Assembly: GCA_031273045.1 (NCBI GenBank)
Contig: JAISSQ010000159.1
Span: 1 to 56,559 of the forward strand
Source: Puniceicoccales bacterium
GTDB taxonomy: Bacteria > Verrucomicrobiota > Verrucomicrobiia > Opitutales > UBA953
Direction: 5' to 3'
DNA length: 56,559 nt
Under the pieces are notes generated by a model. That model had not been told where the DNA came from. It saw only the letters and a program-made list of their open reading frames with translations, and did no database searches. Positions 1 through 40,669 of this stretch are shown here, piece by piece (position 1 is the first letter of the stretch; each line of letters begins with the position of its first letter). The position numbers and the translations under genes were made by a program.

Positions 1-3000
1 ACGTCACCGCCGGCACCGTCACCCTCGACGGCGCGTTCAGCGTCACCGTCACGCCGAACACCGCGACGCTCGTCACCGCGCCCGCCGGCTATGCCGGACA
101 CCCCGCCGCGCCGACCCTCACGGTCACGAACCTCGCCGTGAACACCGGCGCGCTGTTCATCGGTGACGCGGCGTCGCTCGTCCTCGCCGACACCGCCGCC
201 ACGAGCGTCGAAGTCAAAGTCGGCAGCGCGTCCGCCACCGCCGGCGCGACCACCGGCACCACCTCGCTCGGCAACGCAGGCACCGTCCGCCTGACCGCCG
301 ACAGCGACGTCGGCTTCGCCGGCACCGTCGCGTCCGCGCACGTCGTCCTCGACGCCGGCGCGCTGGAAATTCTCGCCGGCAACGCCACCGGCACCCCGAA
401 CTACACCGCCTCGCTCGGACCGCAGGTCTCCTACTCGTTCACCGAGAAAGGCGCCGCGCTGCGCGCCCAGACCGGCGTCACCGCCAGCATCGCCGGCGTC
501 ATCAGCGACCGCGACACCGACAGCAACGCCGGCACGCTCGGCACACTGACCATCGGTGGCGACACCTTCACGAACCACGACCTCGACGGCACGGAGGTCG
601 GCTTCAACGGCAAAATCGTCCTGCTCGGAAAGAACACCTTCCAAGGCGACATCGCCGTGAAAGCGGACAACACCACCGCCGCCGGTGCCGGTGCCACGCT
701 GCAAGTCGGCGGCAAGTCGCTCGCCACCCCCGTCGCTGACGGCGAGGCCGGCGTCCTCGGCTACCGCTCCGCCGCGCCCGCCGCGCCGGTCTATAACGGC
801 GACATCACCGTCGAGACCAAGGCGACTCTCATCTTCAACCAGAACGAGACGCTCTACGGCGCGACGAACGCGACGATTGCCGACCGCTTCACGCAGACCC
901 TCACCGGCGACATCAACGGCGCCGGCAGCGGCGAAGCCACCGGCAACATCATCAAGCACCTCGGCGGAACGCTGGTCTTCACCGGCGACGAAATCGGCTT
1001 CGACACCCTGCTCGCCGACGGCGGCACGACGCGGTTCCTGACCAGCGGCCAGACCGTCTCGATTGGCACCAGCGCGACGATTGCCAGCGCGGTCGCGCCG
1101 ACCGCCTCGACCCCGTGGAACGCCGCGCGCGTGGAAGTCGCCACCGACATCCTCATCCAGCAAGACCCCGCGACCGCCCCGAACACGGCTATCACCATCA
1201 CCCTCGGCGGCAGCACCACCGGTGCCACCGGCGAACTGTTCGTGAAACTCGCGACCGGTGCCGGCGCGGAAACGATGCTCACGCCCTTCGGCTCCGGCGC
1301 GAATGCCGGCGGCAAGGTCGTCCTCGGCAGCGCCGGCGGCATCATCAACATCGAGGACGGCGCGACGCTCCGCCTCTACGCGCCGCTCACCGGCACCAAC
1401 GGCCTGCTCGTGTTCAACGTCCCGGCGGGGAACGACGAGGACTACGTCACCACCGACGACCCCGACACCACCCCGACCGGCACACTGCGCCTGTTCAGCA
1501 CCGGCACCTACACCGGCGGCTCGGAACTCTACGCCGGAACCGTCCAAGTCGGCAGTTACCTCGACAACACCGCCGCGACCGCCCGCGAGAACGTCCTCGG
1601 CACCGGCCTCGCGAAGGTTCGCGGCGTCGTGACCATCGAGGCGCTCTCCCACGCCACGTTCAGCCAGAACAGCGGCAACACCTTCGAACTCGATTACGAC
1701 AACGCCGTCCTGAACCTCGACGCCTCCGACTACGGCAGCGTGCTCACCTTCGGCAACGTCTTCACCGACGACATCGCCGGCGCCAACCACCACACCGGCG
1801 GCGCGCAAGGAACCGCGCTCCACATCACGACCGACACCGCGCAGGGCGGGGCAGTCGGCAAGTTCACCGCCGGCAAGCCAGACCTCGTGAACAACCGCTA
1901 CGCCGACATCGTCGTCACCGCCGCCGGCCGCACGTGGCTCGACGGCTCCGCCGGCTTCACCTACGGCTCCTTCACCCAGACCGGCTTCACGCAGGTCGCG
2001 GACGGCCTCACGGCGCACACGATTGGCGCCGAGCGCGTCCACCTCGACAGCGCGTTCCTGACCGCCGACACCACCGACGACAGCACCACCCTCGCCGCCA
2101 TCACCATCGAAACCCTCACCGGCAACGGAACGGTGACGCTCTCGAACACCGGCGACATCACCGGTGCCGGCAAAATCCTCATCAAAGACCTCGTTTCGCC
2201 CGACACGAAGTCCTACGGCACCGCCGCCGCCAACGCCGCCCTCGTCGCCGGTCTCGGCGCGAGCGACAGCGCCATCTACGCCACCCTCACGTTCCTCACC
2301 ACGCCCGGCGCCACCGCCCCGCTCGGAACCGTCACCCTCGGCAACTCCACCTCGAACAAGGACTACGCTGCGGTGCCCGGCACCGACCCCGCCGTCTACC
2401 GCAACATCTACCACATTGACGTGAAGGACGCCGCCGGCGGTCTCGCAACCAACGGCGCCAAGTGGGACTCGCTCGTCGTCGGCTCCGCCGCGAACGCCAC
2501 CGTCCTCACCTTCAACACGCACGTCACCGCCGACGTGATTGACTGGGTCGCCACCGCCGTCACGCCCTCGCGCTACCTCGTCGTGGACACCGCCGCGAAG
2601 ATTCTCACGGACGACGCCGCGCTCGGTTCCATCGCGCTCTCCGCGTCCGACAAGGTCGTTCTGCGCCCGTGGACAAGCAACGGCGACCACGACTCCACCG
2701 GTGCCGCCCCCGGCACCACGCACATCCACGTCCTCAAGGACGAGTGGCTCGACCTCACCAGCGCGCTGCCCAGCGGCGCCGCCTATCCGCCCGCCGAGCG
2801 CCGCAAGGGCTTCCTGCTGCTCACGAACGACGCCAAGGGCGTCTCCGCCTCCTCGCCCGCCGATGACGCGAACATCGAACTCTACCTGACGACCACGAAC
2901 GCGCTCGTCGAATGGTGGGGCTTGGACAGCAACACCCTCGCCGGCACCGCCGCGCTCTCCGGCGCGACGGTTCCCGCCACCACGCTTTGGACGGAGATGG

Positions 3001-6000: not shown

Positions 6001-9000
6001 GCAACGTCCTCACGAACGCCGGCGGCGGTGCCACCGCCGGTGACGATGCCGCGGTGATTACCGTGAGCGTCGCCAGCGCCATCACCATCACCAGCGCGGC
6101 GAACGCGAACTTCACGCCGACCTACACCGCCGCCACCGGCCAATGGGCGAAGAACGACAAGAACGAACCCGCCCGCCTCGAACTCGGCAGCGCGGTCGCC
6201 TACCGCGCCGCCGCGAGCACGGATGTCCTGACGCTCACCTTCGGCGGCGCGAACAAGACCGGCGAACTCTACGTCGTCTCGCAGGGCACCGCCGGCCTCA
6301 CCACCGACGGCGGTCAGCCGAGCGACCCCGACAACGTCCTGCGTCCCTTCGCCAACGCCGCCACCGGCACCAAGGTCGTCCTCGGCAGCGGCGCGGGCGC
6401 GGGCGTCATCAACATCGAGGACAACGCGAAACTCGTCCTCGACTACGCCCTCACCGGCGGCCACCTGCTCTTCAACGTCCCGTCCACCGGCACCGGTTAC
6501 AACGCCGACTTCGACACCACGCCGGGCGGCACGCTGCTGCTCAACGCCACCGGCACGCTCACCGAGGCCAGCACGCTCTTCGCCGGCCGCATCGAAGTCG
6601 CCGCGGACAACGTCCTCGGCAACGGCACCACGCTCTTCATCAAGGGCTACCAACTGAACAGCGTCACCGGCACCACCGGCGTCACCCTGCGCAACGTCCT
6701 CAACGACCTCGACAGCAGCAAAGACCACTCGCTGAACAACCCGCTCGTGCTCGCCGCCAACGGCGCGTTCCTGACGCTCGACGACCGCAACGGCACGAAC
6801 GACACGCTGACCGACGACTACGTGTTCACGCTCACCGGCGGCATCACCTCGACCGCGCAGACGAACGCCGCGAACACCTACCTGCGCCTGCTCGGCGGCA
6901 CCGCCACCGGCACCGTGCCGCAGGGCGTCGGCCTCGTCATCGCCACCACCGGCATCACCGCCGGCATCACCGCCGGCAGCACCGCGCCCATCCAGATTGA
7001 GACCTCCGGCAAAGTGTTCCTGAACGCCGCCGTCACCAACGGCATCACCACCGGCGACACCGGCGACGCGTCCATCTACTCGAACTTCCACCAGTTCGCC
7101 GCCACCGGCAGCGGCGTCGTCGCGCTCGACACGCTGACGCAGTTCGCCACCGGCGGCACCGTGAACACCGTCGGCGAACTGCTCGTCGAAGGCGGTCAGT
7201 TCCGCCTCGCCAACAGCACCGTCTCCGCGACCGCCGCCGGCAACGCGAACGCCGCCGGTCTTGCCACCGGCAAGGCGGACGGCACCGGCGCCGGCGTCTC
7301 CACCTCCGGCAACGCCGCCGGCTTCATCACGAAGAGCGCCGACTCGCCCGTCCTCGTGACCGGCCAAGGCACGCTCACCTCCGCCGACGGCTTCCTGTTC
7401 GACGGCACGGCGGGCAACTTCTCCGCCGGCGCCATCTTCGCCGCCGCCGACCTGTCCGACACCCACGGCTACCTCGCCTACGCCGGACAAATCCCCGCGC
7501 TGACCCTTTCGCCCGACAACGGCAAGGCGCTCACCCCGACCGACCTGTCCATCCGCACCGCCGCCAGCCCGCTCTCCGACCTCACCGGTCAAATCGTCGT
7601 CAACGGCGACGCCGAGTTCCGCAACGTCCTGTTCAAGACCGACATCACCGGCTGGGACGTCTCCGGCGCCACCTCCGCTTGGGACAAGTCCGGCTCCGCC
7701 GCGCACGCCTCCTACTACGGCGCGAACGACAACATCCTGCTGCCCAACACCGACAAGCACGTCGCCACCTTCGGCGCCGACAACCACATCTCGCTCAACA
7801 TCGAGAACTGGCACGACGGGCGCTACATCCTGCTCGACACCGGCGCCACGATTCTCACCGCCGACGCCGCGACCGCCCTCGCCGACGACGCCCGCTACGC
7901 GCTCTCCTACGGCTCCAACCCGCCGTTCGTGAACTACGCGCTCCTGAGCCACGACGCCGCCAACGCCGCCTCCGCCAAGGCGTTCAACCTCATCCCGTCG
8001 CCCTTCAACAATCTGCTCGGCGACGTCACCCTCGGCTCCGCCGTCTCCGACCCGACCTCCATCCGCAAGGCGGTCTATCTCGCCGTCACCGACGACCCCG
8101 CCACCGGTCCCGCCACCGTCGAGAAGACGAACATCGAAGCCATCCTCGTCACCCGAAACCTCGTCCTGACTTGGACGAACTCGCAGAGCGACAACGTCTG
8201 GAACGCGGACTATGACACCTACACCGCCGGCACCGGCAACACGACCACCACCGCCGGCACCGAGAACTGGAAGGTCGAAGCCGCCCTCAACGACGGCCTC
8301 GCCGCCGACCCGTTCTCGTTCCGCAACGGCGACGTGGTGTTCTTCAACTTCACCGAGGACACCGACGCCGCCTACGAGACCGACACCAGCACCGGTGACG
8401 TGCGCTTCCTTGGCGGCAGCGTCGCCCAGCAGACCATCAAGATTGACACCGCGGCGGCGACCGCCGGCGGCGTCCGCTTCGTCGGCGCGATGACCGTCCA
8501 CGGCAGCAGCGATTACGTGTTTGAGGGCGACACCGGTCGCGTCACCGCGCTCACCGGCGGCGGCTACCTCCTCACCGGCCGCGACGTCGAGAACCTCGCC
8601 TCCTTCGAGATTGAGCAGTTCGTCACCGGCAAACTCACCGTCGGCAGCGCGCCGACGCGCGGCGGGTTCACCCGCTCGACCCTGCTCGACGGCGACATCA
8701 CCGCCGACGGCAACGCGCTCGCGTTCCCCGACACCACGACCGCCCGCTTCGACGTGCCGGTCTCCTTCGAGGGCTTTGACCTGCTCTCCGGCGTCACGAC
8801 CTTCAACGCGCCGCTCTTCATCGGCGCCGCCGCCCGCGCCGCGAACGCCCTCACCGGCGAGCCGCAGGAACCCGCCCGCGCCGGAACCGTCAACCTGCTC
8901 GCCGGCGCCACCGCCATCCTCGACAAGTCGGCGGTCGTCTCCGCCGAAGTCGCCGCCACCTTCAACCTCGGCTTCATCAACTACGACTACGAGCAGAAGG

Positions 9001-12000
9001 GCTGGACGGTCGGAACCGGCTGGGTGGACACCGCCGCCGGCAACGAATTCGTGACCCCGAACGCCGCCTACCTCGCCAAGGCGTTCGCCGACGGCGCGCA
9101 CCTCGTCTTCAAGGACGAGTTCGCGACCGCCGACGGCACCACCGGCACCACCACCTACGAACTCGGCCTGCGCTACGCGAAGAACGTCATCAACCTCGGC
9201 GTCGCCACAATCAGCGTGAACGTCGCCGCCGACCAGCCGACCTACTCGTCCGAACTCAACGTGACGCTCTGGGACTCCATCAACGTCCCGATGACCGTCA
9301 CCGCCGACACCGTCGTCTCCGGCGTCGTTACCACCGCCGGCACCGTGCTGCCGACTTATGCCGACGGCTCCGCCGGCGCCGCCGCGAAGACCTTCGCCTC
9401 CGACGGCTCCGTCTCGCCCGCGTGGCTGCGCGACAGCGCGCTGCTGCTCGACGGGCACGGCACACTCACCTTCGGCCGCTCGACCTACGCCCTGAACGGT
9501 GGAGCCGCCGACAACCTTGTCGCCGTCAACACCCTCATCGTCGCCAACGGCCCCGCGACCTCCGTCGCCGGCGGTCTGGCTCTCGGCGCCGCCGATGACC
9601 AAGGCGCGGCGTTCGGGCACGGCACCACCTTCGCCACCGGTCGCGCGCTCGCCGTCAACACGCTCGAAATCGCCTCCGGCAGCCACCTGCTCTTCGAGGA
9701 GCAGACCTGGCTCGTCCTCGACAACCAGCAGACGCAAGCCCTCGGCGCTTCCGGCGCCGCTCCGACCATCACCCTGCGTGACGGCGCGAAACTCGAACTG
9801 ACCACCACCACGAAGGTCTCGCCCAGCACCGCCGTCTCCGGCGCCGCCGCCGGCAACGCCGACGCCTACACGCTCTACATCGGCGACGACTCCATCGTGA
9901 CCACCGTCGCCGCCGCCGGTGGTGACCCCGGCAATTCCAACTCCTATCCCGTCCGCACCGACCTCGTGTTCAACGCCGGCCACGCCGTCACGTTCAGCGC
10001 GGGCGTCTCCGCCGGCACCGCGACCATCGGCGACTATGTCCGCGCTTACACCTTCGCCGCCGACGCCTCCGAGACCCGCACCGCCGCCGGTGCCGAATGG
10101 ACATCCGGCAAGAACCGCATCGTCCTCTCCGCGCACGGCGAGAACGTCATCACCGTCAACAACGCCGACGGATACGTCTTCTCCGGCAAAATTATTATTG
10201 GATATACGGATCCAACTCCCGGTCCTTCTGTCCCCATTTACGCCAACGATTACACCGGTCTTGCCGCCGCCATCACGACCGTTGAAATCGCCGACAACAT
10301 CACCGGCGGTGTCCTCGTGAAGGAAGGCGCGGGCATCCTCAAACTCTCCGCGCAGAACACCTACAAGGAGCCATCGAGCGACCTCGCCCCGTGGGCGGTT
10401 CTCAACGCCGACCGCGTCGCCGGCACCTACATCACGTGGGGCACCGAACTGCGCGAGGGCTTCATCGAAATCGCCGCCGACACGCGCGACGCCTCCGGCA
10501 ACATCACCGGCGACTCCTACGGCGGTGTCGGCACCACCGCCGTCTCCGGTCCGCTGGGCACCGGCAACGTCCTCGTCTCGAACATCGCCGGTCTGACCAA
10601 CTACGACGACTACACGCCCACCGGAACCTCGCTGAACTCCTACATCTCCGCCGCCCTCACCGGTATCCGCGCCACCGCGTCGCACAGCATCGCCAACCAG
10701 TTCTTCGTGAACGACTACCTCGACCGCGGTGACCACCAGGACTTCTGGGTCGAGGCGGACGGGCAGAACACGCTCCTCAAACTCGCCGGCAACACCGGCA
10801 GTGACGCCATCACGTTCTTCGGCGGCGGCGACACCGTCTCGTTCATCGGCACCGGCAGCATCTCGCTCCAAGGGCACGACGAGGCCATCGCCCACTCCTC
10901 CACCGGCACCATCAACATCACCGTCGGCGGCGCGAACCCGCTCACTGGCAAGAACGACAACACGAACGTCTATTTCTCGTCGCGCATCACCGCCACTGCC
11001 GCCAACTCCTCGCTGAAGAACCTCGGTGCCGGCATTGTCCAGTTCTCCGTCCTCGACGCTTCCGGCGTCCACAAGGTCGGCGGCGAGATTTCCGCCACCG
11101 CCGGCGGCGTGTTGCGCGTCTATTCGACCATCGGCGCCACCTCCGCGCTCGAATCCGGCTCGTTCGTCGTCAGTAACGGTTCGACCCTCGCCGGCAACGG
11201 CCAGATTTCCGCGACCAGCGGCTTCAAGTTCACCAACGCCATCATTTCGCCCGACAACGTGGAACTCGCGCCGGGCTACCATGCGTTCAGCGCCGGCGCC
11301 CCGTCCGCGTCCATCCTGCCCGGCGGCGTCTCGATGAGCAAAATCGGCCGTCTCGACCTCGCCGGCGATGCCGAGTTCATCGAGAACACGAACCTCTACT
11401 ACGGCGTCATTACCGCCGGTTCGCAGCACGACTACGTGACCGCCACCAACATCATCCTCGAAGCCGGCAACAACTATACGACCACCTTTAACGTCCTGCT
11501 CACCGGCTCGCTCGTCGAGCAGACCTACCCGCTGCTGTCCTCCACCGGAAACGTCATCCGCTACGGCAGCACCAACTACAACCTCGCCGACCACACCCTC
11601 GGCACTTGGGGTAGCGAAAAACTGCTCACCAGCGCGTTCACGCCCGACGGCTCCTTCGTCGCCACCGGCTACCCCGCCAACAACCTCGTCCTGAAACTCA
11701 ACTGGGAGAACGCGACCGGCGACAAGTATCGCGACGCCGCACGCCTCGTCCTCACCGACAACGACGCGACCATCGCCCTCAAGACCTACAAGGCGAACCT
11801 GCTCGTCGAGTGGTATGGCGAGGACGCCGATAACGACGGCGTCTCCACCACCGCCGACCTGCTCACCGGAGCCGTCGCCGCCGACGCCATCCAGACCTGG
11901 AACATCACCGCCAAGAACTGGAACGCCGTCACGACGCCCAAGAACACCGACGCCATCGCGTTCATCGAGCGCGACGCCGTGCTCTTCGCCGGCCACGGAC

Positions 12001-15000
12001 AGGGAACCGTCACCGTCACCGGCAACCCGGGCACCCCCGCCTCCCCCGGCACCCCCGCCAACCCCGGCAAATACTTCGTCTCGGCGATGACCGTGACCAA
12101 CACGTCCGTCACCAATCCGGGCACGGACGCCGTGAACTATGTCTTCGCCGGTGCCGACATCGTCGGCTCCGACGCGCAGACCCTCACCAACTCCGGCCTC
12201 TACCAGCGCGTTACCGGCGCGCTCACCATCGCCGGCGCCAAGGTCACCGCCACCTTCAACAACAACATCTCGTTCACCGAGATTGACGCGCGCGACGCCG
12301 CCCGCGCCGCCTTCGCCGGAAAAGTCACCCTGACCGCCACGACGTGGACCGCGCCGTGGGTGCACAGCCCCGCCATCTCCTCCGTCCTCAACATCGGCAC
12401 CACCGGCGGAATCGACGCCGCCGGCGCCGCCTACGCCGCCTCGAACGCGACCGTCGTCTTCCTCGACGACGCGACGCTCACGACCCTCAACGCCGCCGAC
12501 ACCGCCGTCGCCTCGACGATTAACCTCACCACCGGCGCCGCCGCCGCCGGCGTCTCCGTCCTCGGCTTCGACACCACCGAGACCAACTCCGCCACCGCCG
12601 TCCCCGTCAACGCCCTCGCCGCGACCAACGTTAACAGCGTGCTGAACACAATCGTCACCACCGGCAACGTCGCCCTCGACGTGTCGAACACCGGCGTCGC
12701 GGCGAGCGTCACCGCGACCGTCGGCTACCAAATCACCGGCACCGGCAACACGGTTGAGAAGACCGGCGTGGGCAAACTCATCCTCATCGGCGCCAACGAT
12801 GACGGGCAGGACAGCACCCTCACCGACACGTGGTCGGCGAAGGTCTCCGTCGGCATCTTGAGCATCGGCGCGGACGCCAACATCGGCTCCGGCGCGGCGC
12901 ACACGCTCGCCGGCGGCACGCTCGAACTCACCGGCGCCACCTACGCCAAGGACTGGTTCCTCGCGGACGACACCGACAGCGCGATTGTCGCCGCCAACAC
13001 CACCTCGCCGTTCACCACCGTCTTCCGCGGCGTCATCGCCGACGAGCCGGTCACGGGCAACGGCACGCTCACGGTGAGCAGCCCGCAGAACGCCACCGCC
13101 GGCAGCACCACCGGCGCCCTCGTCTTCACCGGCGAGAGCACCTTCTCCGGCAACCTGACCATCGCCGCCGGCAAACTCGTCCTCGGCAACGGAACCACCG
13201 GCTCGTTCGACAGCGCCAACGCCGACTCCACCGGCAACGCGCCGACCTACGTCGGCGCCGTCGCCATCGCGCAGGGCGCCTCGCTCGAATTCAACCAGAA
13301 GGTCGTCTCCTCCGGCGCGCCGCTCTCCCAGAAGCAGACCTTCTCCGGCGACGTGACGACCACCGCCACCGCCGCGACGGGCGACTACTCGACCATCACC
13401 AAGAACGCCACCAACACGCTCGCCTTCACCGGAAACGTCGCCGTGGACGTCCTCAACGCCACCGGCGGCCTGACCACCTTCGGCACCGCCATCGGCGCGA
13501 CCAACGGCGGCGCGAAGACGCTCGCGCTCAACGCCCTCGCCATCACCGACGGCACCAACACCGGCACCAACACCTTCACGCAGGTCACCATCGGCTCCGG
13601 CGTCGCGACGACCTTCGCCGTCCGCGACTCCTCGGTCGCTCCGGCGCTCTCCATCACCGGCGCCAGCGCGGCACTGCCCGCCGTCCTGCGCTTCGAGGAC
13701 GCCGCGGACGGCGTCGCCTACGCGACCGCGCCCGCGACGAGCGACGTCCTCGCCGTCACGCTCGACAACGCCCGCCTCGAATTCCTCGGCGCGCCGGCGA
13801 CGAACTACGGCGGCACCGTCACCGCCCTCTCCACCGCCGCCACCAAGGAACTCTTCAGCGGCGCGGACAGCGTCATCACCCTCGCCAACACCGCCATCTT
13901 CGCCGTCAACGACGCCAAACTCACCGTCGTCGTGGACGAGTTGATTGAGGGCACCGGACCGCTCGTGAAGACCGGCGCCGGCCGCCTCGTCCTCTCCGGC
14001 GCGAACACCTACACCGCGAACACCACCCTCGCCGCCTCCGGCGTCTCCGCGAACGGCAACGACGCCGGCGTCCTCGAAATCGCCAACAACAACGCCCTCG
14101 GCGTGAACGACGGCAGCACGACGCTCACCGGCTCCGCCGGCACCATCGCCGCCAACGGCGACTACACCGTCCGCCAGCAGTTCTTCATTGATGGCAGCAC
14201 CGGCATCAACGCCCAGACGCTGACCTTCGCCGCCGAAACCGCCGGCAAACTGCTCACGATTGACTATGGCACAGGTCTGGCGAACGCCATCAATCCGGGC
14301 GACAACGACACCATCACCTTCACCGGACCCGGCGGCGTCCGCATCACGAACGCCTTCAACCGCGCCATCAATAACGCCAGCGACACTGTCGCCATCAACG
14401 TCAACGGCGGCGTCACCGCGTTGCTCGACTCTATCATCAGAATCGGAAACGGCCTCTTGACCGTCTCCGGCGCGGGCACGCTGCTGCAATTGCAAGGCGA
14501 CTCGAACCTCTCCGGTGCCAGTGCCTCGGATGGTCGCGCGACCGTCACCGGCGGCGAACTGCGTCTTGCCGGCGCGGGTGCGAAACTGACCGCGAACACC
14601 TTCACCGCGACCGCCGCCGCCTCGACCGCCGCGAAACTCTCCGGCGCGGGAGAAATCATCGCCGTCGGCGGCTTCGCCTTCGACGGTTCCGCGAGCGGCG
14701 CGACCGTCACCATCGCGCCTGACAGCGGCAACGCCTTCACCGGCGCCACCGACGACGAGAAGACCGTCTCCGGCTACGGCGAATTGAAACTCACCGGCAC
14801 CACCGGCGCGACGTTCACCAAGACCGTCTTCGACCTCGACTACACGACCACCACCGGCAGCACCGCGCACGACACCGTGACCGTCTCCGGCGCCGTCCGC
14901 TTCCTCAACACCGACGCCTCGAACAGCACCAAGAGCACGTTCGACCTCGGCGGCATCGGCGTCTTCGGCGAAGGCCTCTCCGCCGCAGACCTCCCGACGC

Positions 15001-24000: not shown

Positions 24001-27000
24001 CGACCTTCACCGGCGAGACCGTGCTGACCGACACCGGCGTCGTCTCCGGCGCCGACATCACGAACGCCGGCGTGCTCACCCTCGGCGGCGGCGAAGCCAT
24101 CGCGCTCACCACCGGCGCCATCACCACGCCGAGCACCGCCGGCGTCGTCATCAGCGGCGACATCGCGGCGAACAGCGGCCTCCTCATCTTCGACCGCACG
24201 GCGAACAGCGACTTCGCGGGCGTCATCACCGGCACCGGCGCCGTGACCGTCACCGGCACGAAGACGCTCACCTTCTCCGGCAACAACACGCAGGCCTACA
24301 CCGGCGTCACCACGCTCGCCGGCGGCGCGACGCTCGTCCTCTCCAACGACGTCGCCGCGCCCGGACCGCTCACCGCCTCCGCCGGCGTCGTCTTCGCCAC
24401 CGAGACCGCGAAACTCGACCTGACCGCCCGCGCCGCCACGACGCTCAAGAACGTCACCACCGGCGCCGCGCTTGCCACCTCCTCCGACGTCGCCGCCGCC
24501 GATGACGCGCGCGTCCTGCTCCAAGGCGCGGCGACGCTCACGCTCACCGCCGCCAACGGCGTCTTCGCCGGCGTGTTCGACGATGACGCCGCGTCCACCG
24601 GCGCGTCGATCATCCTCGCGCCCGCCGCCACCGGCAACACCTACACCCTGCTCACCGCCCAGAAATACAGCGGCGAGACCCGCGCCACCGGCGACCAGAA
24701 ACTCGTCCTCGGCGACGCGACGCTCGGCGCGACCGACGACATCCTGTCCGCCTCCGGCAAGGTCACGCTCGACGGCACCGCCGCGCTCAACGCGCTCGCG
24801 CTCGACACGGTGACCCTGCGCAACCTCAACGCCGCCGACGCCACCGGCGCCGGCACGACGGTCGCCCTCAAAGCCGCCGCCGAACTCGCCGTCCCGCTCA
24901 CCGCGAACCAGACCTTCGCGGGCGTCATCAGCGGCACCGGCGCGAACCTCACCCTCACCGGCGACAAGGTTTGGACGCTCACGAACGCGCAGACCTACAC
25001 CGGCACCACGACCGTCAAGGGCGGCACCACGCTCGCCCTCGCCACCGGCGCCGCCACCACCGGCAGCGTCGCCGCCAGCGTGGAAATCATCCTGCAAAAC
25101 ACGGCGGTCTTCGACGTGAGCGCGGTCAGCGCGCCCGGCGGCAGTTCAATCCAGAAACTCACCGGCGGCGGCAGCACGACCGTCGTCCTCGGCGGCACGA
25201 CCCTCGCCGTCACCGGCGGCGGCAAGCACGAAGGCGTCGTCAGCGGCGCGACCGGCGCCGTCCTCAACGTCAACGGGGCGGGGAAGACCCTGACCCTCAC
25301 CGGCGACAGTTCGGACGCGACGGACGGCTTCCACGGCACCGTGGCGGTCACCGCCGGCACGCTCGCCATCAACCAAGTCGAGAACCTCGGCGCGGACGAC
25401 GCGGCACTGCTGCTCGCCGGCGGCACGCTCAACACCACCGCCGCGCTCGACTTCACGACCAGCGCGAAGATTCACACCGTCCGCGCCGCCGCCGACACCA
25501 CCTCGACGCTCACCACCACCGGCTCGACCGTCACCGACGTGAACCTCGGCAACGTCGCCATCACCGGCACGCCGGCGAGCGCGGCGACCGACACGCTCAT
25601 CAAGAACTCCCTCTCCGCCGGCAGCACGGCGAAGGTCGGCAACTTCGCCGGCACGATTGACAACGCGAAGTGGAGCATCGCCGCCGGCGCGACCGTCGGC
25701 GCCGCCACGAACATCACCGACCTGTCCGTCCACGGCGCGTCGGTCGGCACCGCGACCCTCGGCACGCTCAACGCCGGCGTCATCGCGGGCGTCACCCTCA
25801 ACATCCGCGTCGGCACCGCCATCACGAGCGGTGTGACCGAGAGCGACACGTTCGCGCTCACCGCCGGCGGCTTCGACTTCGGCGCCGGCAACGAGTTCGA
25901 CGTCGGCAACGGCTGGGCGGAAGGGCGCGTTATCACCGTCGCCACCACCACCGGCGCGAACCTGTTCACGACTTCGCTCAGCGGCTCGCTTGAAAACAGC
26001 GACACCAGCGCGACCGCGTTCCTCGCGACCATCAACGCCACCGGCGGCGTCGCGATTGACTTCCACAACGGCGACGCGCGCTCGCAGGCCGAGTTCGTGC
26101 TGGCCGACAAGAACACGCTCCAAATCGCGTTCTATCAGGACAAATACGACCTGCTGTGGACGGGCTTCAACGAAGGCCCGAACGGCACGACGCAGAACCT
26201 GAAATGGACGACCGAGCACACCGACACCAACTGGACGAAACTCGCGAACAGCCCGCTCGCCGGCAGCGAATACTTCGCGAACTACGACGCGGTGACCTTC
26301 GACCCCTCGGTCACCGGCAACAACCTCTCGGCGGGCAACACGCCGGTCGCCGTCCAGACGGCGGGCGTCATCACCACCGGCGTCGCGATTGAGACCGGCT
26401 CGTTCACCTTCACCGGCGGTTCCATCACCGGCACCACCTCGCTGCTCTCCGGCGGCACCGGCGGCGCGGGCAACCTCTCCGTCGGCTCGAACAACGGCGC
26501 CGCCGCCGCGACCTTCGAGAACGTCCTCACCTTCACCGGCGTCACCGTCAACGGCGCCACGAACAACGCCGCGCTGACGCTCCAGAACACGCTGACCGTC
26601 ACCGGCACCGGAACCATCACCGTCGCCGCCGGCACCGGCGCGACCGGCGTCCTCACGCTCACCGAGAAGTTCGACGCCTCGAACGCGCTCGTCTCGACCG
26701 GCAAACTCGGCTCGGCGAACGACCACGACGTCGTCCTCGCCACCGGCGGCGAACTCGTCTTCGACTACGCGAACGCGAACACCTACGCCGGCGACATCAC
26801 CGGCAACGGCAAGGTCACCAAGAAGGGCGCCGGCGTCCTGACCCTCACCGGCGCGGACACCTTCACCGGCACGCTCGCCATCAACGGCGGCGGGGTCGTC
26901 CTCGACAATGCCTCCGCGACCGTCCTGACCGCCTCCGCCGCCGTTGAATTCGGCAACGCCGCGACGACCCTGACCCTCGCCGCCGGCGCCGCCGCGCAGA

Positions 27001-30000
27001 CCGTCGGCACGATTTCCGGCACCGCCGCCGGCGCGGTCATTGACCTTGGAAACTCCGCGCTGACCACCGTCTCCGCCGCCAACTCCACGTTCGCGGGCGT
27101 CATCACCGGCGGCACCGCCGGCACCGCGGGCTTCTCCTCGCCGGTCTTCGTCAAGGGCGGCGCGGGCCACACGCTCACGCTCTCCGGCGCCAGCGACTAC
27201 GTTGGCGACACGGAGGTCGCCGACGGCGAACTGAAAATCACCGGCTCGCTCGGCGGCTCCGGCGCGAACTACGCCGACGACATCCAACTGACCGCCGCGA
27301 CCTCCGTCCTGCACCTCGCCAACGCCGGCGCGTCCTTCACGCAGGAAATCTTCGGCGTGATTAGCGGCGCCGGCGCCTTCGCGAAGGACGGCGTGTCCGC
27401 CGCCCTCCTCTCCGGCGAAAACACCTACACCGGCGACACCACCCTCGGCGCGACCGGCGGCACCGTGACCGTCACCGGCTCGCTCGGCTACACCGGCGCG
27501 ACCGCCGCGAAATACGCCGGCGACATCGCCGTCGGCACCGGCGCGGAACTCGTCTTCGACCGCGCGACCGCCGGTCTCACGCAGACCCTCACCGGCGAAA
27601 TCACCGGCGCCGGCACGCTCACGCAGAACGGCGCGAACACGCTCGTCCTCGACCTCGGCGACACGGCGACGCCCGCCGGCGGCAACACCATCGCCGCCGT
27701 CAAGGTGCTCGACGGCACCGTGCGCTTCGGCAAGGCCGCCGACCTCGCCGCCGCCACGCTGACCCTCGGCGGCGCCACGACCGCCGGCACGTTGCAGTTC
27801 ACCCTCGACACCACGCCGGGCACCACCGGCGAGCAGACCATCGCCGCCACGAGCGTCGTCTTCGGCGCCGGCACCGGCGTCATCGAGACCACGAACAGCG
27901 CGGACGAACTGAAAATCGCCGCCGTCCTGTCCGGCTCGGACTTCGAGAAGACCGGCGCGGGCAAACTCACCCTCGCGGGCGCCAGCGCCGACTACGCCGG
28001 CGACATCGCCGTCAGCAACGGCACGCTGCAAATCGCGAACGCCGCGAACCTCGGCAAGGGCGGCATCACCCTCGGCAGCGCCGCCACCGCCGCCACCTTC
28101 GCGCTCGTCACCGCCGCCGACGGCGACGCGGTCACCCTCGCCAACACCTTCACGCTCGACGGCAAGGGCGGCGACATCTCGGTCGTCTCCGGCACGACGC
28201 CCGCCGCCGCCACGCTGACGCTCACCGGCGCGTTCACCGGCACCGGTGACGCCCTCGCGAAGAACGGCGCCGGCTCGCTCGTCCTCGGCGGCACCGCCGT
28301 GAACGACTTCGTCGCCACGAACGGCATCGCGTTCAACGCCGGCCGCCTCGTCCTCGCCAAGGACAGCGCGCTGGGCGACACCGCGAACCTCCTCACCCAC
28401 GCCAGCACCGGCGCGCTCGAAATCACCGACGGCGTGACCTCCGCGAACGACATCGCCTTCGACACCAACGCCGCGAGCCGCGAAATCTTCGTCGGCACGA
28501 AGGCGGGGAACGACGCCGCCGCCGCCGTCGGCACCCTCTCCGGCGTGTTCAGCGAGACCGGTGGCGGCACGCCGCCCTTCGGCCTCGTCAAGACCGGCGC
28601 GGGCGAACTCGTCCTCTCCGCGAACACCGCCGCCGACGGCGCGTTCGACTCCGGCGCCTATACCGGCAGCGTCACCATCAGCGCCGGCACGCTCACCGTC
28701 GCCTCCGCCGAGTTCAACAACGCGCTGCTCAACGACCCGTCGAACGACACGACGACCAACCTGAAAGACCCGCACGACAGCACCGGCAACACGCCCCTGA
28801 AGGACACCTTCCGCGTCGCCCGCGCGAACGCGACGGACGCCTTCGCGTTCGGCACCGGCGCCGGCACCGCGTTCACCGGCTACGTCGAAATCACGAAGGG
28901 CACCATCACCCTCGAAGCCGGCACCACCGCCGTTCCGACGCAGAACGCGACCGTTTCGACCGTCGCCCCCGCGACGCTCATCCTCACCGGTGCCAGCGGC
29001 GACACCTACGCCTCCGCGACCGGCCGCGCGCACGTCCTCGGCACGCCCGTCATCGGCGACCTCGTGCTCAACGGCGGCGCGCTGGAATTCGACGCCGACC
29101 TCATCCTGCCCTCCGCACTGCTCACGGTGGGCACCCTCACCGTCCGCGAAGGCAGCGTCGTCCACATCAACGGCATCTCCGGCACGCCCGCCTCGGGCGC
29201 GACCGTCATCACGACCAACCCCGCCGTCTCCGCCTCGCAGAACATCTACGACTACTGGCGCACCGGCTTGGACAACGACCCGCACCAACTCGTGAAGGCC
29301 GCCGACGTCGTCGGCGCGCAGGGCAACCTGACGCTCGACCCCGCCTCCGACACCGGTCAGGTCCGCTACCTTGCGGACGACGCCGCCGCCGTCGCCGCGA
29401 ACAACATCACCGGCGAGGCGACCTTCGACTACGACTTCCTGCTCATCAGCGCGGCGGACGCCTCCTCCTCGACCTCCGCGACCATCGTCGCCGGCGGCGC
29501 CGGCCTCTACCTCGGCTACACGCTCACCGAAATCAAGGCATACGCGAACAAGGTCGTCTCGCTTAACGCCGACACCGTGACCGCCGCCGCCACGCAGCCG
29601 AAACTCGACGCGAAACTCACCGGCGACGGCGGGTTCAAGTTCACCGACGACCTGACCGCCGGCCGCGTCATCGAGATTGGTCACACCGGCAGCGACTACC
29701 TTGGCGCGACGACGCTCGACAACATCAGCGTCCACTCCGAGACCGCCGCCGTCTTCGGTGCCGCAGCCCCGCTCACCCTCGACAACAACGCGCAACTCAA
29801 CCTCGGCGGCGGCCTGACCGTCACCTCCCTCGCCGGCACCGCCGGCACCGGCATCGCCAACTACGCCGCCACGCGCGACTCCGCCGGCTACGTCACCGGC
29901 CTCAACACCGCCAGCGCGCTGTCCCTCGCCCTCACCATTGACACGGCGGCGGCGGCCGACGCCGACTTCAGTGGCACGCTCACCGGCAACGCCGCCTCGA

Positions 30001-33000
30001 CCCTGACCGTCAAGGGAACCGGCGCGCAGACCTTCTCGAACAACAACAGCGCGTTCGAGGGCGTCGTCGCCATCAGCGGCTCGGCGACGCTGAAACTGCT
30101 CGACGCCGGCGCGACGAGCGGCGCGTTCGCCGCCGCCGCCGCCGTGACCCTCGCCGGCTCGGCGACGCTCGACCTGTCCGCCGCCTCCCCGCTCGTCGAG
30201 TTCAAGAAACTCGCCGGCGCTTCGGCGGACGCGACCGTCCAGTTGAGCGCGGACGCCGGCGCGACCGGCGCGACGCTGCTCCGCCTCACCGCCGGCAACT
30301 ACGTCGCCGGCAGCGCCGAATCGCCCGGTCTCGCCGCGACCATCACCGGCGACGGCGCGTTGCTCTTCGAAGGCGGCACGACCGGCTCGCCGTCGCCGTT
30401 CAGCGGAACCGTCCGCCTCTCCGGCGATAACGACTTCACCGGCGGCACGACGCTCACCGCCGGCAAACTCTACCTCGGCAGCGACACCGCGCTGGGCGTC
30501 TTCACCGGCAGCGGCGCGGCGGGCACGCTCGAAATCACCGACAACGCCACCCTCGGCGTCGCCATCGCCACCGACCACATCACCGCCGCCAACCGCGTCC
30601 ACGTGAAGTCCTCCGCCGGCGTCGCGACCTCCGTCGCGCTCACGCTCGACATCGCCAAGACCGCGGACGACACCGGCTCGCTCACGCTCAACAACGTGAA
30701 TGTCTCCGGCGCCGACGGCGGCGCGCTCCTGCTCGAAGACGCCTCGGTGGCTGTCCGCGACGGCAGCAACGGCGCCCTCGCCATCACGAACTCCTCGACC
30801 GACCGGAACGGCGGCGCCATCGCGCAGGTGAACACCGCCTTCGGCGCGACGCTCAAATTGGAGAACCTCTCCGCGCTCACCCTCACCGGCAACACCGCCG
30901 GCGGCGACGGCGGCGCCATCTACGCGAACGCCACCGGCGCGGCGGTGAACGTCTCCCTGCCCGCCAACACCACCGTCAGCGGCAACGCGGCGGGCGGCGA
31001 CGGCGGCGCCATCCACCTCGCCTCCGCCGCCAGCAGCGCGTCGCTGACCATCCTCGGCGGCAGCGTGTTCGCGAACAACGAGGCGGACGGCGTCGGCGGC
31101 GCGATTGCCATCGCCGGCAACGGCTCCTCGACGAACACCCTCACGCTCAACGCCGAACTGGGCACCATCCGCTTCACCGGCAACACCGCCGCCGGCGTCC
31201 CGAACGCCGTTTACGCGGAGAAGACCGACATCACCGTCCGCGGCAGCAACGCCAGCGTCGCCACCGGCAACGTGTTCTTCGACGACCCGCTGACCGCCGT
31301 CGCCGGCAGTTCGCTGACCGTCGCGGGCAACTTCTCCGGCGACTGGTCGTTCGCGCCGGTCAACGGCAAGCCCGTCCTCACCGCCGGCTCGTCCGCCCTG
31401 CTGCAATTCGCCTCCGGCGACAGCACCGTCAGCGGCGCCATCGCCTTCAACGGACCCAGCGCCACCGGCACCGGCAACGCCGTGCGCGTCGCCGAAGGCG
31501 CGACGTTGACGACGACCTCCACGCTGATTGCGAGCAACAACACCGTGTTGCTGGGCGGCGGCATTGTGACCGCGCCGCTGGGCGCCATCTTCGACGGCGC
31601 CGCCATCGCGCCGGACTCGCACGTCACCACCGCCGCCGGCGCGAACGCCCTCGCGCTGCCCGCCGACCAACTCACCGTCGGCACCGGCAGCGTCGCGAAC
31701 AACGCCGTCTATGGCACGCTGACCATCGTCGCCGGCACCGGCAGTGCCGCCGCCCAGTTCACCGCCGGCACCATCTTCCTCGACATCGAGGGCGGCGCGT
31801 CAGACCACGACGACCTCACCGACGGCAAACTCCGCAACGACCTCATCATCATTGACGGTGACGCGGACTTCGCGCCGTTCTCCGGCAACAACACCAACCT
31901 CGCCCTGCGCTACCACGACGCCGACGGGCAGGTTCGCGGCGAGGGCGCGCTCGCCTCGCAGCCGGTCGTCATCCACAACGACTACTCCTACCCGCTCATC
32001 GCCGCCACCGGCACGTTCACGACCGACCTCGGCAACACGTTCCAACTCTTCGGCGACCCGCAGCGCGACACCGACGTCTCGGCGCGCCAACTCGCCCAAG
32101 TGCGCCTCAACAAGGTGCTCGACGACGGCACGGTCGAGTTCGCCTCGCTCACCGACGGCGCCGGCAACACCTACACCTTCGCCGCCGGACAGGTGCTCGT
32201 CCTCGACGTGATGGGCAACATCAACACCAACATCACGTGGGACATCGGCACCGCCGCGACGAACCGCGCCTTCGTCTGGTCGAACGACGACACGAACGTC
32301 CCGTGGCTCGCCAAGAAGCCCGTCGCCACCGGCTCCGCCACCGTGTCCTACGAGAGCACCTACTTCCTCGACGGCGACTTCGTGTCCTTCTCGACGCAGA
32401 ACGCGGTCAACGACGGCGCGAACCCCGCGTTCGGAAACGGCGCCATCAGCATCGAGATTGACGGCTTGGTGAAGCCCTCCGGCGTCGCCATCGGCGTCAA
32501 CAAAGGCCTCACCGGCCAAGTCGCGCCCGCGAACCACTCGACCGTCGCGCTCGAATTCACCGGCGCCGGCCGCATCGTGAGCGCCGCCGCCAACGAGCGC
32601 CGCGCGCCGACCGCCGACGCGCTGAGTTCGCTCACCTACGACGACGTGCTCTACACGTCCGCCCTCGAAATCGCCTCCGGCGTCACCGTCACCTTCAAGA
32701 ACACCGGCGGCTTCGCCTTCACCGCGCACGACGAGACCGCGCCCGGCGGCTCAATCAGCAGCGTCGGCGGCTTCGTGTCGCTCGGCGGCGCGACGACCAA
32801 CCTCGTGTTCGCGGACGGCTTCGCCAGCACCGCCGGCACGTTCGCGGGCGGCGTCAGCGGCCTGCTCGCGACGCCCGTCACCGGCAGCGGCCGCGTGACC
32901 GCCACCGGCGGCGCGCTCGACCTGACCCTCGCCGGCGGCAACACGTTCAGCGGCGGCCTGCTCGTCACCGACGGCGCGCGCCTCGCCCTCACCGGCGCGA

Positions 33001-36000
33001 ACGGCGTCAGCGGCGACTTCTCCGAAATCACCGTCAACAACGGCGCGACACTCGCCGTGACCGGCGACGCCGCGCTGGGCGGCTCCGGCGCCGCCTCGAC
33101 GAACACCATCCTGCTCGGCGGCGCGCTCAACGGCGGCGTCCTCGGCGCCGGCGGCGTTCTCGACACGACGAACACCGCCTCCGCGACCCTCGAATTCATC
33201 GCGCCGCTGCAAACCCTCGCCGCGACCTTCGACGCCGACGGCAACCTCACCCGCGAGGGCGTCATCAACGACATCTACACCTATCCGGTCGAGGACTACC
33301 CCGTCGCCGTCAGCCGCGAAATCACCCTCGGCGCGAACGTGAACCTGCTCGTCGGCACCTACCGCTACGACGGCGGCAGCGGCGCCCTCGTGACGACCGC
33401 GCTCACGGCGGAACTCTCCGGCGCGCTGCTTGAGCACAGCGACCTCGCCGCCGCCGGCCTGCACAGCGCGGTCACCAAGACCGGCGCGGGCACGCTCTTC
33501 CTCACCAGCGCGGACAACAACTACACCGGCGTCACGCTCGTCGCCGACGGCGTCCTCGCCATCGCCGGCTTCGGCACCATCGAGAAGAGCAGCGGCGTCA
33601 CGCTCGACACCGGCACCGCGCTCGACATCCGCTACGCCGCGCAGCCGGTCGTCATCCAGACCCTCGTCAGCGACGACGCGGACACGACCGTCAAACTCGG
33701 CGGCAACGCGCTCCAAATCGGCTCCGCCGACACCGCCGCCGGCTCCACCACGGATTACGCGGGCGTGTTCAGCGGCAGCGCGGACGCTGTCCTCGTGAAG
33801 GACGGTGCGGCCTACACGCTGACCCTCACCGGCGACAGCAGCGCGACGTTCCGCGGCAGCGTTGACGTGGCGGAAGGCGTCCTCGCCGTCACCAAATACG
33901 GCGCGCTCGGCGCGTCGAACGCCGCCGGCAACACGAACGCCGTCACCGTCAAAAGCGGCGCGGTCCTCGACCTGCGCTACACGGCGAGCGGCGAACTCGG
34001 CAACAACCTCGCCGGCGCCGGCACCGTCCAACTCACCGCGCCCGCCGGCATCGAAGTCGCGCTGACCGGCGCGAACACCGCGTTCGCCGGCTCGCTCGTC
34101 ATCGCCAACGGCAACACCGCCGCGATTGGCACGGACACTTCCACCGCCGCCACCACCGCCGTCGCGAACCTTGGCTCCGCGACCGTCGTCCTCGGCACCG
34201 CCGCGATTGCCGAGGTGCCGGAGAGCGCGCCCGGCGCCGGTGACGGCTCGCCCGCCGTCGCCGCCACCGCCGGCACGCTGCGCATCAACACCGACGCCAC
34301 GATTACGAACGCCTTCACGCTCGAAGGGCAGGGCATCGTGGAAACCGCCAGCACCGCCGCCGGCGTCACGCCCGCGGTCATCGCCGCCGGCGCGTTCACC
34401 GGCGCCGGCTCGCTCGAAAAGAGCGGCGACGGCTCGCTGACGCTCACGAGCGGCACGAACGCCTTCACCGGCGCCACGACCGTCACCGGCGGCACGCTCG
34501 CGCTCGTCGGCGCCGGCACCATCGAAAGCAGCGCCGGCGTGACGCTTTCCGCCGACACCACGTTCGACGTGAGCGCGGCGACGACGGCGTTCGACGCCGG
34601 CACGAAGCACGTCGAAGGCGCCATCATCCAGTCCCTCGCGACCGCCGCCGGCGTCACCGCCGCGACCGCTCCGACGACGGTTCTGGGCGCCGCCGCGCTG
34701 CAAATCGGCACCGCCGACACCGCCGCCGGCTCCACGGATTACGCGGGCGTGTTCAGCGGCAGCGCGGACGCTGTCCTCGTGAAGGACGGCGGCGCGGCCT
34801 ACACGCTGACGGTGAAGAACGCCGCCGCCGCGCTCGCGAACTTCGCGGGTGCCATCGGCAGCACCGGCGGCAAACTCGTCCTCGACTACACCGCTCCCGC
34901 CGCGACCCCGTCGCCCGCGCCGCTTGGCGCGCCGACGCCGCTCGCCGCGCCGGTGACGCCGCTGGCGAACGACCCCGTTGTGGCGAACCCCGTCTTCGGC
35001 ACGGCGGCGGCGGTCATCGAGTTCATCCTGCCCAGCGAGAACAACACGCTGCACGTCTTGGCGGACGCGACGGCCAACACCTCGTTCGGCGGCTTCACCG
35101 GCACGCTGCTCCTGAACAAGGGACGCATCCTCATCGAGGACGCGGCGACGAAGAGTTACGGCGGCAACAGCGACTACGCCGCCGACCTGCTCCAAAACGC
35201 CACGTTGAGCGTCGGCTCGACCGCGACCGTCGCTGTCAACAACACCCGCTCGCTCGCGGGCGTGGTCAGCAACGGCGCGACGTTCGACTTCACGAACGCC
35301 GAGGTCGTGCCGGCGGTGACGCTCAATGCCACCAACCTCACGCTCACCGGCACCACGACCGTCAAACTGCGTCCGGTTGACGTTCCGCTGCCGACGGTCG
35401 CTCCGCCCGCCATCGCGCAGAACATCCTCGATATGTGGGCGGATGCGACGCCCTCGCAGATGCTCATCACGAGCGCGACGGACGTCGCCGGTGACGGCGA
35501 GGTCAACCTCGTCTGGGCGAATTCGGACGGCACCCCCGCGCAAGCCATCGCGAGCGAAGGCGTCTCGGAACGTCCCATCGCCGGCGGCGTGGCGGAATTC
35601 GACTACACCAGCGGCCTCATCCGCACCGACGCCGACCAGCATTTCGCCGACACCGGCACACGCGGCATTTACCTCGGCTACGGCCTGACCGCGCTGCGCG
35701 CGAACGTCGGCGAGACCATCACGCTCGACGTTGCCGGCGCGACTAACCCGAAACTGCTCGCCGCGCTCACCGAGGAGAAGGCGGACGACGGCTCCGGTCA
35801 GTTGACCGAACCGGGCAACGGCGGCTTCGCCATCATCAACAGCAACTACACCACCGGCGGCGCGCTTCCGGTCGTCGAAGTCGGCAAAGACACGAGCGCG
35901 TTCACCGGCGGCGTGACGATTAGCGGCGTCGAGGTGCAACTGGTCGCCGACAACGCCTTCGGCAGCGCGGCGAACGGCGGCTACGCCTCGAACCTCACGC

Positions 36001-39000
36001 TCACCGACGGCGCGAAACTCGACATGGTGCAGACCAGCACCACGTCCGACCCCGTCACCGGCGACGACGTCACCACGCAGACCCCGATGAAGGTCATCGT
36101 CGCCTCCCTCGGCGGCGGCGCGAACGCCAACGGCGCGGGCACGACGATTAACGTCGGCGACCTGACCGTTGCCGGCGGCGGCGAATACGCGGGCAACCTC
36201 ACCGGCGGCGCGCTCGACGGCGGCGCGGTCTCGACCCTCACCAAGACCGGCGACGAGACGTTCAAACTCACCGGCGCGAACGAGTTCCAAGGCGACATCG
36301 CCGTCAGCGGCGGAACGTTCGACCTGACCGGCACGCTCGGTGCCGACGGTGCGGGCGACAAGACGCCGGACTTCACCGGCAACATTGACCTGACGCCCGC
36401 CCCCGGCTCGACCAGCGCGCCGCAGGTCGTCTTCGGCAACACGGACGCGACCGTCACGCAGTCCCTCTCCGGCACCGTCACCGGCGGCAGCGTTGGCACC
36501 GCCACCGGCGACGTCGCGGGCGTCATCAAGAAGGTCGGCGACTCGACGCTCGACCTGACCGAGGTTGACGCGACCGCGTTCGACGGCGGCGTTGCCATCG
36601 AGGGCGGCGTCACGCGCATCGCGAGCGACGCCAACCTCGGCAAAGGCGTGAACGTCCTCGGCGGCGGCACCGCCAGCGGCACGGTCGCCCCGACGCTCGA
36701 ACTCACCGGCACCGCCGGCGACGCGGCGTTCGGGAAGGGCTGGACGGTCGCGGGCGACGCGAACCTGCTGGTCGCCGCCGGCAACGACGTGACCTTCGCC
36801 GGCTCGCTTTCGGACGCCGATTTGAGCGTCGGCAACCTCACCAAGACCGGCGACGGCAAGGTGACGCTCACGAACCCGACGAACGCGCAGAACTTCACCG
36901 GCAACGTGACCATCGCCGGCGGCACCGTCGCCATCACGAGCGACGGCGCGCTCAACAATTCGGGAAGCGAGCGCGTGCTCAACGGCGGCGCGGTCGAACT
37001 CTCCGGCGGCGTGACCTACAACAACGACTGGAAGACCGGCGACAAGGGCGGCGCGGTCGTCGCGAACGGACCGGACACCGTGTTCAATGGCTCCATCACC
37101 GGCACCGGCGACCTCGCGCTCGACATCGGCGCCGGCGCGTCGCTGCAGTTCACCGAGGGCGCGACGGTTGACGTCGGCTCCGCCGGAACGGTCAAGACCG
37201 GCGCGGGCGTGCTCGTCGTGGACGGCGCGGTCAACAGCGCCATCACCATCGAGCAGGGAACGCTCGCCGGCAACGGCGTCATCAAGACCGCCACGTTCGA
37301 CCCCGACCGCGACGGCGACGGCGTCGGCGACGCCTACGCGAAGTTCCTCGACAGCGGCAACGCGGACGACCTCGTGACCATCGCGCCGGGCGGCGTGGAC
37401 AAGATTGGCGAAATCACGTTCGGCGACGGGGCGAACACGACCGACTTCACGGGCGTGCGCATCGCGCTCGACACGGACAACTCCGGCGCGCAGGACAAAA
37501 TCCTCATCAAGGGCAACGGCACCTACGGCGCGAACAACGTCATTGACGTGCGCAACGCCGCCGGCGGTCCCTCGTGGGACAACGACACGTTCGTCGTCAT
37601 TGACGCCGGCACCGGTCACATCGACTCGACCCGCGCCGACCTCGACAGCACGCAGTTCTACTACAACGGCTCCTACGTTGACATCGTCAACGGGCGCTTC
37701 CGCGTGGACATCGAGACCGTCGGCGACTCGCAGGTGGTCATCCACACGCAGGCGGGCGTTGACAACGACGGCGACGGCTACCCCGACGGCGTCTCGCTCA
37801 ACCTCATCTGGAACGCGACGGACTCCGCGAAGTCCGACTGGAACGCCGGCGACGAGCCGCTCGCGACCAAGAACTGGCGCGAGGACAAGGGCGACGGCGT
37901 CGTCCACCCGCAGACGTTCTACAACGGCGACATCGTGACCTTCCCCGCCTACGACATCAACGGGGAGGACAAACTCATCAAGTCGGTGCGCGTCGCCGGC
38001 AGCGCGGTTCAGGCGGACGTCTCGGTCGGCCGGATGACGGTCAGCGGCGGCTCCTACGAGTTCGGCGGCAACGGCATCATCGGCACCGGCGACTTCACCT
38101 ACGGCAGCGGCGCGGCGGAATTCGCCGACGGCTCGCTCAACATCACCGGCAGCGCGAGCGCGACGTTCAAGAACAGCGGCGTGGTGAAGTTCACCGGCGG
38201 CGCCTACGTCGGCTCGGCGGCGCAGTTGCGCATCGAGACGACGTTCGAGGCGCCGAACGCGAACGTCCTCGGTACGCTGACCATCGCCGACGGCGCGGTC
38301 ATCAGCGGCCTGCCGCTCATCAACCTCGGCGTGAACAAGGCGGGCGACGTCGCCGGCGCGGGCACGGTCGTGTTCGACCGCACGTCGGGTCAGGACATCA
38401 CCTACGGCGGCGTCATCGCCGGCAGCGGCGACCTCGTCAAACGCGGCGGCGGCAAACTGACGCTCACCGGCATCAACACCTACGACGGCGACACGACGGT
38501 CGAGAACGGCACGCTGTCCATCGCGGGCGACGCGAACATCGGCGCGGGCATCAACACCCTCACGAGCGGCGCGGACACGGTCGCGGTCCTGAACCCGACC
38601 GGCGGCACCTACGCGAAGGATTGGGTGCTGGGCGCGTTCGGCGGCACCGTCCAGAACGCGGCGCAGAGCGTGTTCACGGGCGTCTTCTCCGGCGCCGGCT
38701 CGCTCACGAAGACCGGCAACGGCACGCTCGTCCTCGCGGGCGAGAACACCTACACGGGCGCGACGGTCGTCAACGCCGGCAAACTGCAGGTCACCGGCTC
38801 GCTCGGCGCGAACAACGCCGCCGGCGGCGTCCCGACCTACCGCGCCGCCATCGCGCTCAACTCCGCCGAGGGCATCGAGTTCGCGCAGAACAGCGCGCAG
38901 AACATTGACGGCCTCATCAGCGGCACCGGCGCGCTCGCCAAGTCCGGCGAGGGAACGCTGACGCTGCTGGGCGACCGCGACCACACGGTCGGGAACGTGA

Positions 39001-40652: not shown

Positions 40653-40669
40653 GGGAGGAGGAAGCCGAA

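What the first reader, a model, noticed from the sequence alone, without database searches (positions are those of the whole stretch)
1..40652. Autotransporter of more than 13,500 residues in one uninterrupted frame
An open frame of 40.65 kb that still ends in an intact beta-barrel is among the largest plausible bacterial proteins. The frame has no stop despite heavy repetition, so selection is keeping it open. The true length is unknown because the 5' end is outside the window.
Basis: partly seen in the sequence, partly recalled or inferred. Interest (0 to 1): 0.78.

Follow-up and report, generated by a model that had tools for sequence, protein, structure and literature searches.

The report
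Giant autotransporter from a Puniceicoccales bacterium
A single uninterrupted gene in an uncultured Verrucomicrobiota bacterium encodes at least 13,549 amino acids of a self-exporting surface fibre; the assembly of the stretch read is sound, the true start lies on another contig, and the design is a known one (a classical type Va autotransporter) carried to extreme size.

Summary
Confirmed. Window 3-40652 (+) is one open frame of 13,549 residues (1.35 MDa, no cysteine) ending in an intact 12-stranded autotransporter barrel. The window is a whole MAG contig, so the start is missing. Inside the frame the longest exact repeat is 58 bp, and beyond the first 119 bp it shares at most 29 bp exactly with the other contigs compared. 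The assembly breaks at 119-mers, so a repeat-driven chimera is unlikely. But 0 stops against about 85-96 expected, 0 Cys and the barrel show a real gene. It is a classical type Va autotransporter: PATR beta-helix, linker helix, barrel (EspP Z 33). The passenger carries ten W-rich units. The genome has two further closed frames above 10,000 aa, and about 13.6% of it lies in such frames. The largest barrel-bearing frame elsewhere in the order sample is 7,032 aa. The first 119 bp are a k-mer fork; a super-repeat found genome-wide only in C171, C28, C90 and this contig suggests one gene of about 21,000-30,000 aa (inferred). Likely role: surface adhesin or coat fibre (inferred).

The parts
3..40652 (+). 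Open frame of the autotransporter, 13,549 aa, 5'-open at the contig edge, stop TAA 40650-40652
1..119 (+). Fork k-mer: identical to the first 119 bp of contig C28, diverging at base 120; the contig ends here because of a shared repeat
3..1382 (+). Super-repeat copy 1 (aa 1-460), 42% identical to copy 2; family found genome-wide only in C160, C28, C90, C171
4023..5399 (+). Super-repeat copy 2 (aa 1341-1799)
2886..3200 (+). W-module 1 (aa 962-1066)
8148..8408 (+). W-module 2
11787..12023 (+). W-module 3
15285..15533 (+). W-module 4
18549..18797 (+). W-module 5
21441..21683 (+). W-module 6
23253..23501 (+). W-module 7
26133..26381 (+). W-module 8
32217..32480 (+). W-module 9
37794..38030 (+). W-module 10
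13110..38792 (+). Region with the recognised PATR (PF12951) repeats; at least 16 matches, first 13110-13184, last 38703-38792
   Evidence: TIGR02601
38979..39620 (+). C-terminal end of the beta-helix, predicted at high confidence; matches Hap, Ag43, pertactin, IcsA passengers
39624..39725 (+). Alpha-helical linker preceding the barrel
39852..40649 (+). 12-stranded translocator barrel (PF03797 / TIGR01414), last residues SYRLRF

Best explanation
A genuine giant classical (type Va, AIDA/PATR-type) autotransporter gene of a Puniceicoccales/Opitutales bacterium. Shown by sequence and structure prediction: single frame, PATR-bearing passenger, beta-helix end, linker helix, 12-stranded barrel. Inferred from the family: Sec export with the N-terminal signal peptide that lies on another contig, barrel insertion by BAM, and passage of the passenger through the barrel from its C-terminal end, with folding into a beta-helix outside the cell. 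At 20-30 residues per 4.8-Angstrom rung, 13,200 residues would give a fibre of very roughly 0.2-0.3 micrometre. The passenger contains ten W-rich units of a kind that occurs once, just after the signal peptide, in the smallest autotransporter of the same genome; this suggests growth by serial duplication and divergence of passenger units in front of one barrel. Most likely role: surface-tethered adhesin or coat fibre towards host, protist, plant fibre or neighbouring cells (inference).
For: Open frame, stop deficit, no Cys. Barrel by profile, by AlphaFold (649 aa, mean pLDDT 84, exactly 12 long barrel strands) and by fold (EspP Z 33.1, NalP 31.4, AIDA-I 30.3; beta-helix to Hap 16.6, Ag43 16.4, pertactin 16.1; BrkA Foldseek E 6.8e-19). 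PATR matches. Two sister frames in the same genome, C132 (10,587 aa frame) and C207 (10,208 aa), are closed at both ends within contigs and have both a signal-like N-terminus (...RRLLSAAATLGALLAPAAA...) and a barrel. W-modules 10x here, once in the 730-aa frame. Longest internal exact repeat 58 bp; at most 29 bp shared with the other contigs compared, beyond the first 119 bp.
Against: No signal peptide in the window. The N-terminal third has almost no recognisable PATR, and its 839-aa model is weak (pLDDT 53; best PDB matches are mostly autotransporter passengers but with E above 0.05). No expression data. dN/dS is uninformative because codon bias suppresses dS, also in barrel controls. Short-read MAG, with no coverage data available.
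Confidence: 0.85

Rival explanations
1. Assembly artefact: several smaller autotransporter genes were fused or repeats expanded by the short-read assembler.
For: MAG from short reads, 247 contigs; the genome has many paralogous PATR genes, and contigs do break inside such genes.
Against: Contig ends overlap by exactly 119 bp and congeners' contigs are named k119_, so the graph k was 119. Inside the frame the longest exact repeat is 58 bp and the longest exact match to the other contigs compared is 29 bp: no ambiguous junction at that k. GC3 is flat and there is no complete internal barrel (one weak partial barrel-profile hit at aa 8592-8679). Independent frames above 10 kaa exist in the same genome.
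Confidence: 0.05
2. Decaying or non-expressed gene whose openness reflects GC-rich codon composition only.
For: The antisense frame is also open for 6,222 aa; substitutions between internal copies fall equally on all three codon positions.
Against: 0 stops against about 85-96 expected from its own composition, 0 Cys, in-frame barrel with the invariant residues of 24 homologues. Equal codon-position changes are also seen between barrels of this genome, so that test does not discriminate.
Confidence: 0.05
3. A secreted polyprotein: the giant passenger is cut outside the cell into ten or more separate passenger-like proteins at the W-module boundaries.
For: Ten W-modules at 600-2,030-aa spacing, a module that in a small autotransporter directly follows the signal peptide.
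Against: No protease domain was found in the Pfam/NCBIfam scans; no cleavage motif is known; no biochemical data.
Confidence: 0.08

Closest known systems
Classical type Va autotransporters of AIDA-I / Ag43 / pertactin / Hap type
   Same: PATR (PF12951) passenger, beta-helix, linker helix, 12-stranded PF03797 barrel
   Different: At least 13,549 aa; the Brucella type Va adhesin BmaC, called large, is 340 kDa (PMC8111173), against 1,346 kDa here. Ten serial W-units in the passenger; no Cys
Other giant surface ORFs: Omnitrophota (39,678 aa, PMC10066038; up to about 85,800 aa cited in PMC12057145), Apilactobacillus kunkeei Giant1-5 (PMC12863079)
   Same: Very large, repeat-rich, presumed extracellular proteins; in A. 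kunkeei about 6% of the genome and with a beta-solenoid
   Different: No autotransporter barrel is mentioned for them in the papers read (A. kunkeei is Gram-positive; the V. archaeovorus protein has 42 predicted TM helices)
Two-partner secretion (TpsA) and large type I adhesins (SiiE)
   Same: Large adhesive passengers
   Different: Exported through separate machinery; this frame carries its own barrel. A separate 7,814-aa TpsA-like frame lies on C198 (PF05860 E 5e-8)

Membership tests
Type Va autotransporter | C-terminal 12-stranded translocator barrel (PF03797) | tested here: met
   PF03797 E 2.1e-41; TIGR01414 E 1.7e-44; 12 long strands; EspP Z 33.1
Type Va autotransporter | Alpha-helical linker in front of the barrel | tested here: met
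   Helix at model residues 308-341; EspP alignment starts at residue 302-305
Type Va autotransporter | N-terminal Sec signal peptide on the same chain | not testable with these tools
   Start lies off the contig; closed sister frames C132 and C207 have signal-like N-termini
Type Va autotransporter | Beta-helical passenger | tested here: inconclusive
   Met for the last 300 or so passenger residues and PATR region; the N-terminal third gave a weak model
AIDA/PATR subgroup | Passenger-associated-transport repeats PF12951 | tested here: met
   At least 16 matches in the frame; E 9.7e-38 in the last third
Trimeric autotransporter (type Vc) | Short four-strand YadA-type anchor | tested here: not met
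   The C-terminal domain is a full 12-strand PF03797 barrel, no YadA anchor match
Two-partner secretion passenger (type Vb) | No barrel of its own (passenger and transporter are separate chains) | tested here: not met
   Has its own barrel in frame; the N-terminus, where a TPS domain would be, is unseen

The most novel reading that the evidence does not exclude
The window is the C-terminal part of a single autotransporter gene whose N-terminus is contig C171 and whose middle includes a roughly 2.7-kb repeat present twice (plus C28 and C90): about 21,000 aa if C171 joins directly to the window through that repeat, about 29,500 aa if all four contigs are one gene.
Probability: 0.6. Interest if true: 0.65.

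Novelty: new member of a known kind. Interest (0 to 1): 0.52.

Why it matters
It pushes the size of a self-exporting type V protein to at least 13.5 kaa and makes a long-standing question concrete: how long a passenger can be kept export-competent and pulled through a single 12-strand pore without an energy source in the outer membrane. The genome spends about 13.6% of its bases on such frames, which suggests that surface fibres are central to the lifestyle of this genus, and gives a natural length series (0.6 to over 13.5 kaa) of autotransporters with related barrels.

Tried and rejected
dN/dS and codon-position tests between module copies: near 1 for passengers, but also for barrel controls, so uninformative at GC3 0.93. 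A suspected frameshift between the C198 7,814-aa frame and the barrel ORF was rejected: the second is a separate gene with its own signal peptide, the first has a TPS domain. The antisense 6,222-aa ORF rejected as codon-bias shadow (it is the mirror frame). The ARAGORN tRNA-Lys inside the ORF (33900-33989) is not supported by Rfam. N-terminal module fold search gave no significant match. Literature searches found no described autotransporter of this size in the open-access library, which does not include most subscription papers or bioRxiv. The isolate names of the congeners were not found in the termite-MAG paper checked.

Full report
OBSERVATION. The window is a whole contig, G000:C160, of a 3.12-Mb, 247-contig, 84%-complete MAG. 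Frame 3..40652 (+) is open for 13,549 codons and runs off the left end. Its own codon-position composition predicts about 85 stops and a Markov null 96 +/- 10; none is present. There is no cysteine in 13,549 residues; mass 1,346 kDa, pI 4.3. The stop deficit, absence of Cys and the in-frame barrel carry the argument instead.

IS THE ASSEMBLY SOUND? Inside the frame the longest exact direct repeat is 58 bp (33748/34732) and the longest exact match to the other own-genome contigs compared is 29 bp, apart from the first 119 bp. The best long repeat is 179 nt at 87%. The window's first 119 bp are identical to those of contig C28 and then diverge at once; several other contig pairs also share exactly 119 bp at their ends; congeners' contigs are named k119_; a termite-gut MAG study used MEGAHIT with a maximum k of 119 (PMC11257099). 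So the graph k was most likely 119 and no ambiguous junction lies inside the frame. Two other frames of more than 10,000 aa are closed at both ends within single contigs: C132 (10,587) and C207 (10,208), each with a signal-like N-terminus and a barrel.

WHAT IT IS. The C-terminus matches TIGR01414 (1.7e-44) and PF03797 (2.1e-41). An AlphaFold model of the last 649 residues, built from 25 sequences (this one and 24 homologues of the genus), has mean pLDDT 84 with a beta-helix end, a linker helix and 12 long barrel strands. Structure comparison gives EspP Z 33.1, NalP 31.4, AIDA-I 30.3 for the barrel and Hap 16.6, Ag43 16.4, pertactin 16.1, IcsA 15.8 for the beta-helix. PATR repeats (PF12951) occur from about base 13,110 to 38,792. 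The first third has almost none; an 839-aa model of it is weak, with strand repeats in the middle at pLDDT about 70-86, and its best PDB matches, mostly autotransporter passengers, are not significant. A profile of a W-rich unit (roughly LxWxG...W...NW...F.xGDxVxF) finds ten copies along the frame, three to five in the other giants, and one, directly after the signal peptide, in the smallest autotransporter of the genome. Growth by serial addition of passenger units to one barrel is the simplest reading (inference).

THE MISSING START. The frames of this genome that include an N-terminus start with GC3 0.68-0.85 over the first 600 codons and mostly rise to 0.9 or more; the window starts at 0.93, as expected for an internal point. 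The 1,068-aa C28 frame belongs to a super-repeat of about 1,340-1,380 aa that the genome-wide search finds only in C28, C90, C171 and C160, and not in eight congeners. C171 carries a signal-like N-terminus followed by about 6,600 aa running off its end; C90 is 5,985 aa open on both sides; C171 and C90 end in the same 119-mer, C28 and C160 start with the same 119-mer. By module coordinates the gap between the two 119-mers is about 800-865 aa, so the missing node would be about 2.6-2.8 kb. Contigs under 3 kb are stated not to be held in one of the genome collections, and I assume the same here. This looks like a two-in, two-out repeat. If C171 joins the window directly, the protein has about 21,000 residues; if C171, C28, C90 and the window are one gene, about 29,500. 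Neither path is shown; strain variation is a further possibility. I did not build a joined sequence.

RELATIVES. The barrel query matches in the own genome and 6 of 8 congeners and in none of the 29 more distant genomes of the first sample; PF03797 in general is common in the order (81 of 177 genomes), where the largest other frame was 7,032 aa (G110) and then 5,056. Named relatives are Puniceicoccales MAGs; a termite-gut source is likely from the style of the records but unverified. In the own genome 39 listed frames (one, C219, counted twice) of autotransporter or beta-solenoid composition, counted from stop to stop, cover about 423 kb after that correction, about 13.6% of the MAG.

FUNCTION. 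Export by the type V route and folding outside are inferred from the family. With 20-30 residues per 4.8-Angstrom rung the known part alone would be about 0.2-0.3 micrometre. Adhesin or coat fibre is the most likely role; no ligand domain was identified.

NOVELTY. Same kind of system as known type Va autotransporters; exceptional in length and in share of the genome. Larger bacterial ORFs are known in other groups (PMC10066038, PMC12057145), with no autotransporter barrel mentioned in the passages read.

Noticed in passing
window 40855-40979 and 41053-41175: Two copies of a palindromic element (GGAGCGCCGACTTTCAAGTCGGC ... GCCGACTTGAAAGTCGGCGCTCC) just downstream of the ORF; the 23-mer occurs 131 times forward and 135 times reverse in the MAG, control 0. 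A REP/MITE-like element.
   Followed up: partly
window 40669-40698, 43766-43798, 52172-52219: Heptanucleotide tandem repeats (AAGGATG, CTCCCCG, GCGGGGA); the first directly follows the autotransporter stop codon.
   Followed up: no
C132, C207, C57, C74, C36 and others of G000; G007 and G008 congeners: GC3 ramp: nearly every giant gene of G000 starts at GC3 about 0.75-0.85 and rises to 0.92-0.95 within 600-3,000 codons; a similar ramp at lower GC3 in congeners. Cause unknown.
   Followed up: partly
L073-L074 (G000:C198:4352-27796, minus strand): A 7,814-aa TpsA-like frame with a TPS domain (PF05860 E 5e-8), directly upstream of a 730-aa-frame autotransporter with its own signal peptide.
   Followed up: partly
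window 33900-33989 (-): ARAGORN calls a tRNA-Lys inside the giant ORF; Rfam does not confirm it, probably false.
   Followed up: yes
L084 end / L076 start (G000:C196 and C134): C196 (4,944 aa, open both sides) and C134 (5,910 aa, 5'-open, barrel) share a 28-bp end in the same frame, so a further gene of more than 10,800 aa is possible.
   Followed up: partly
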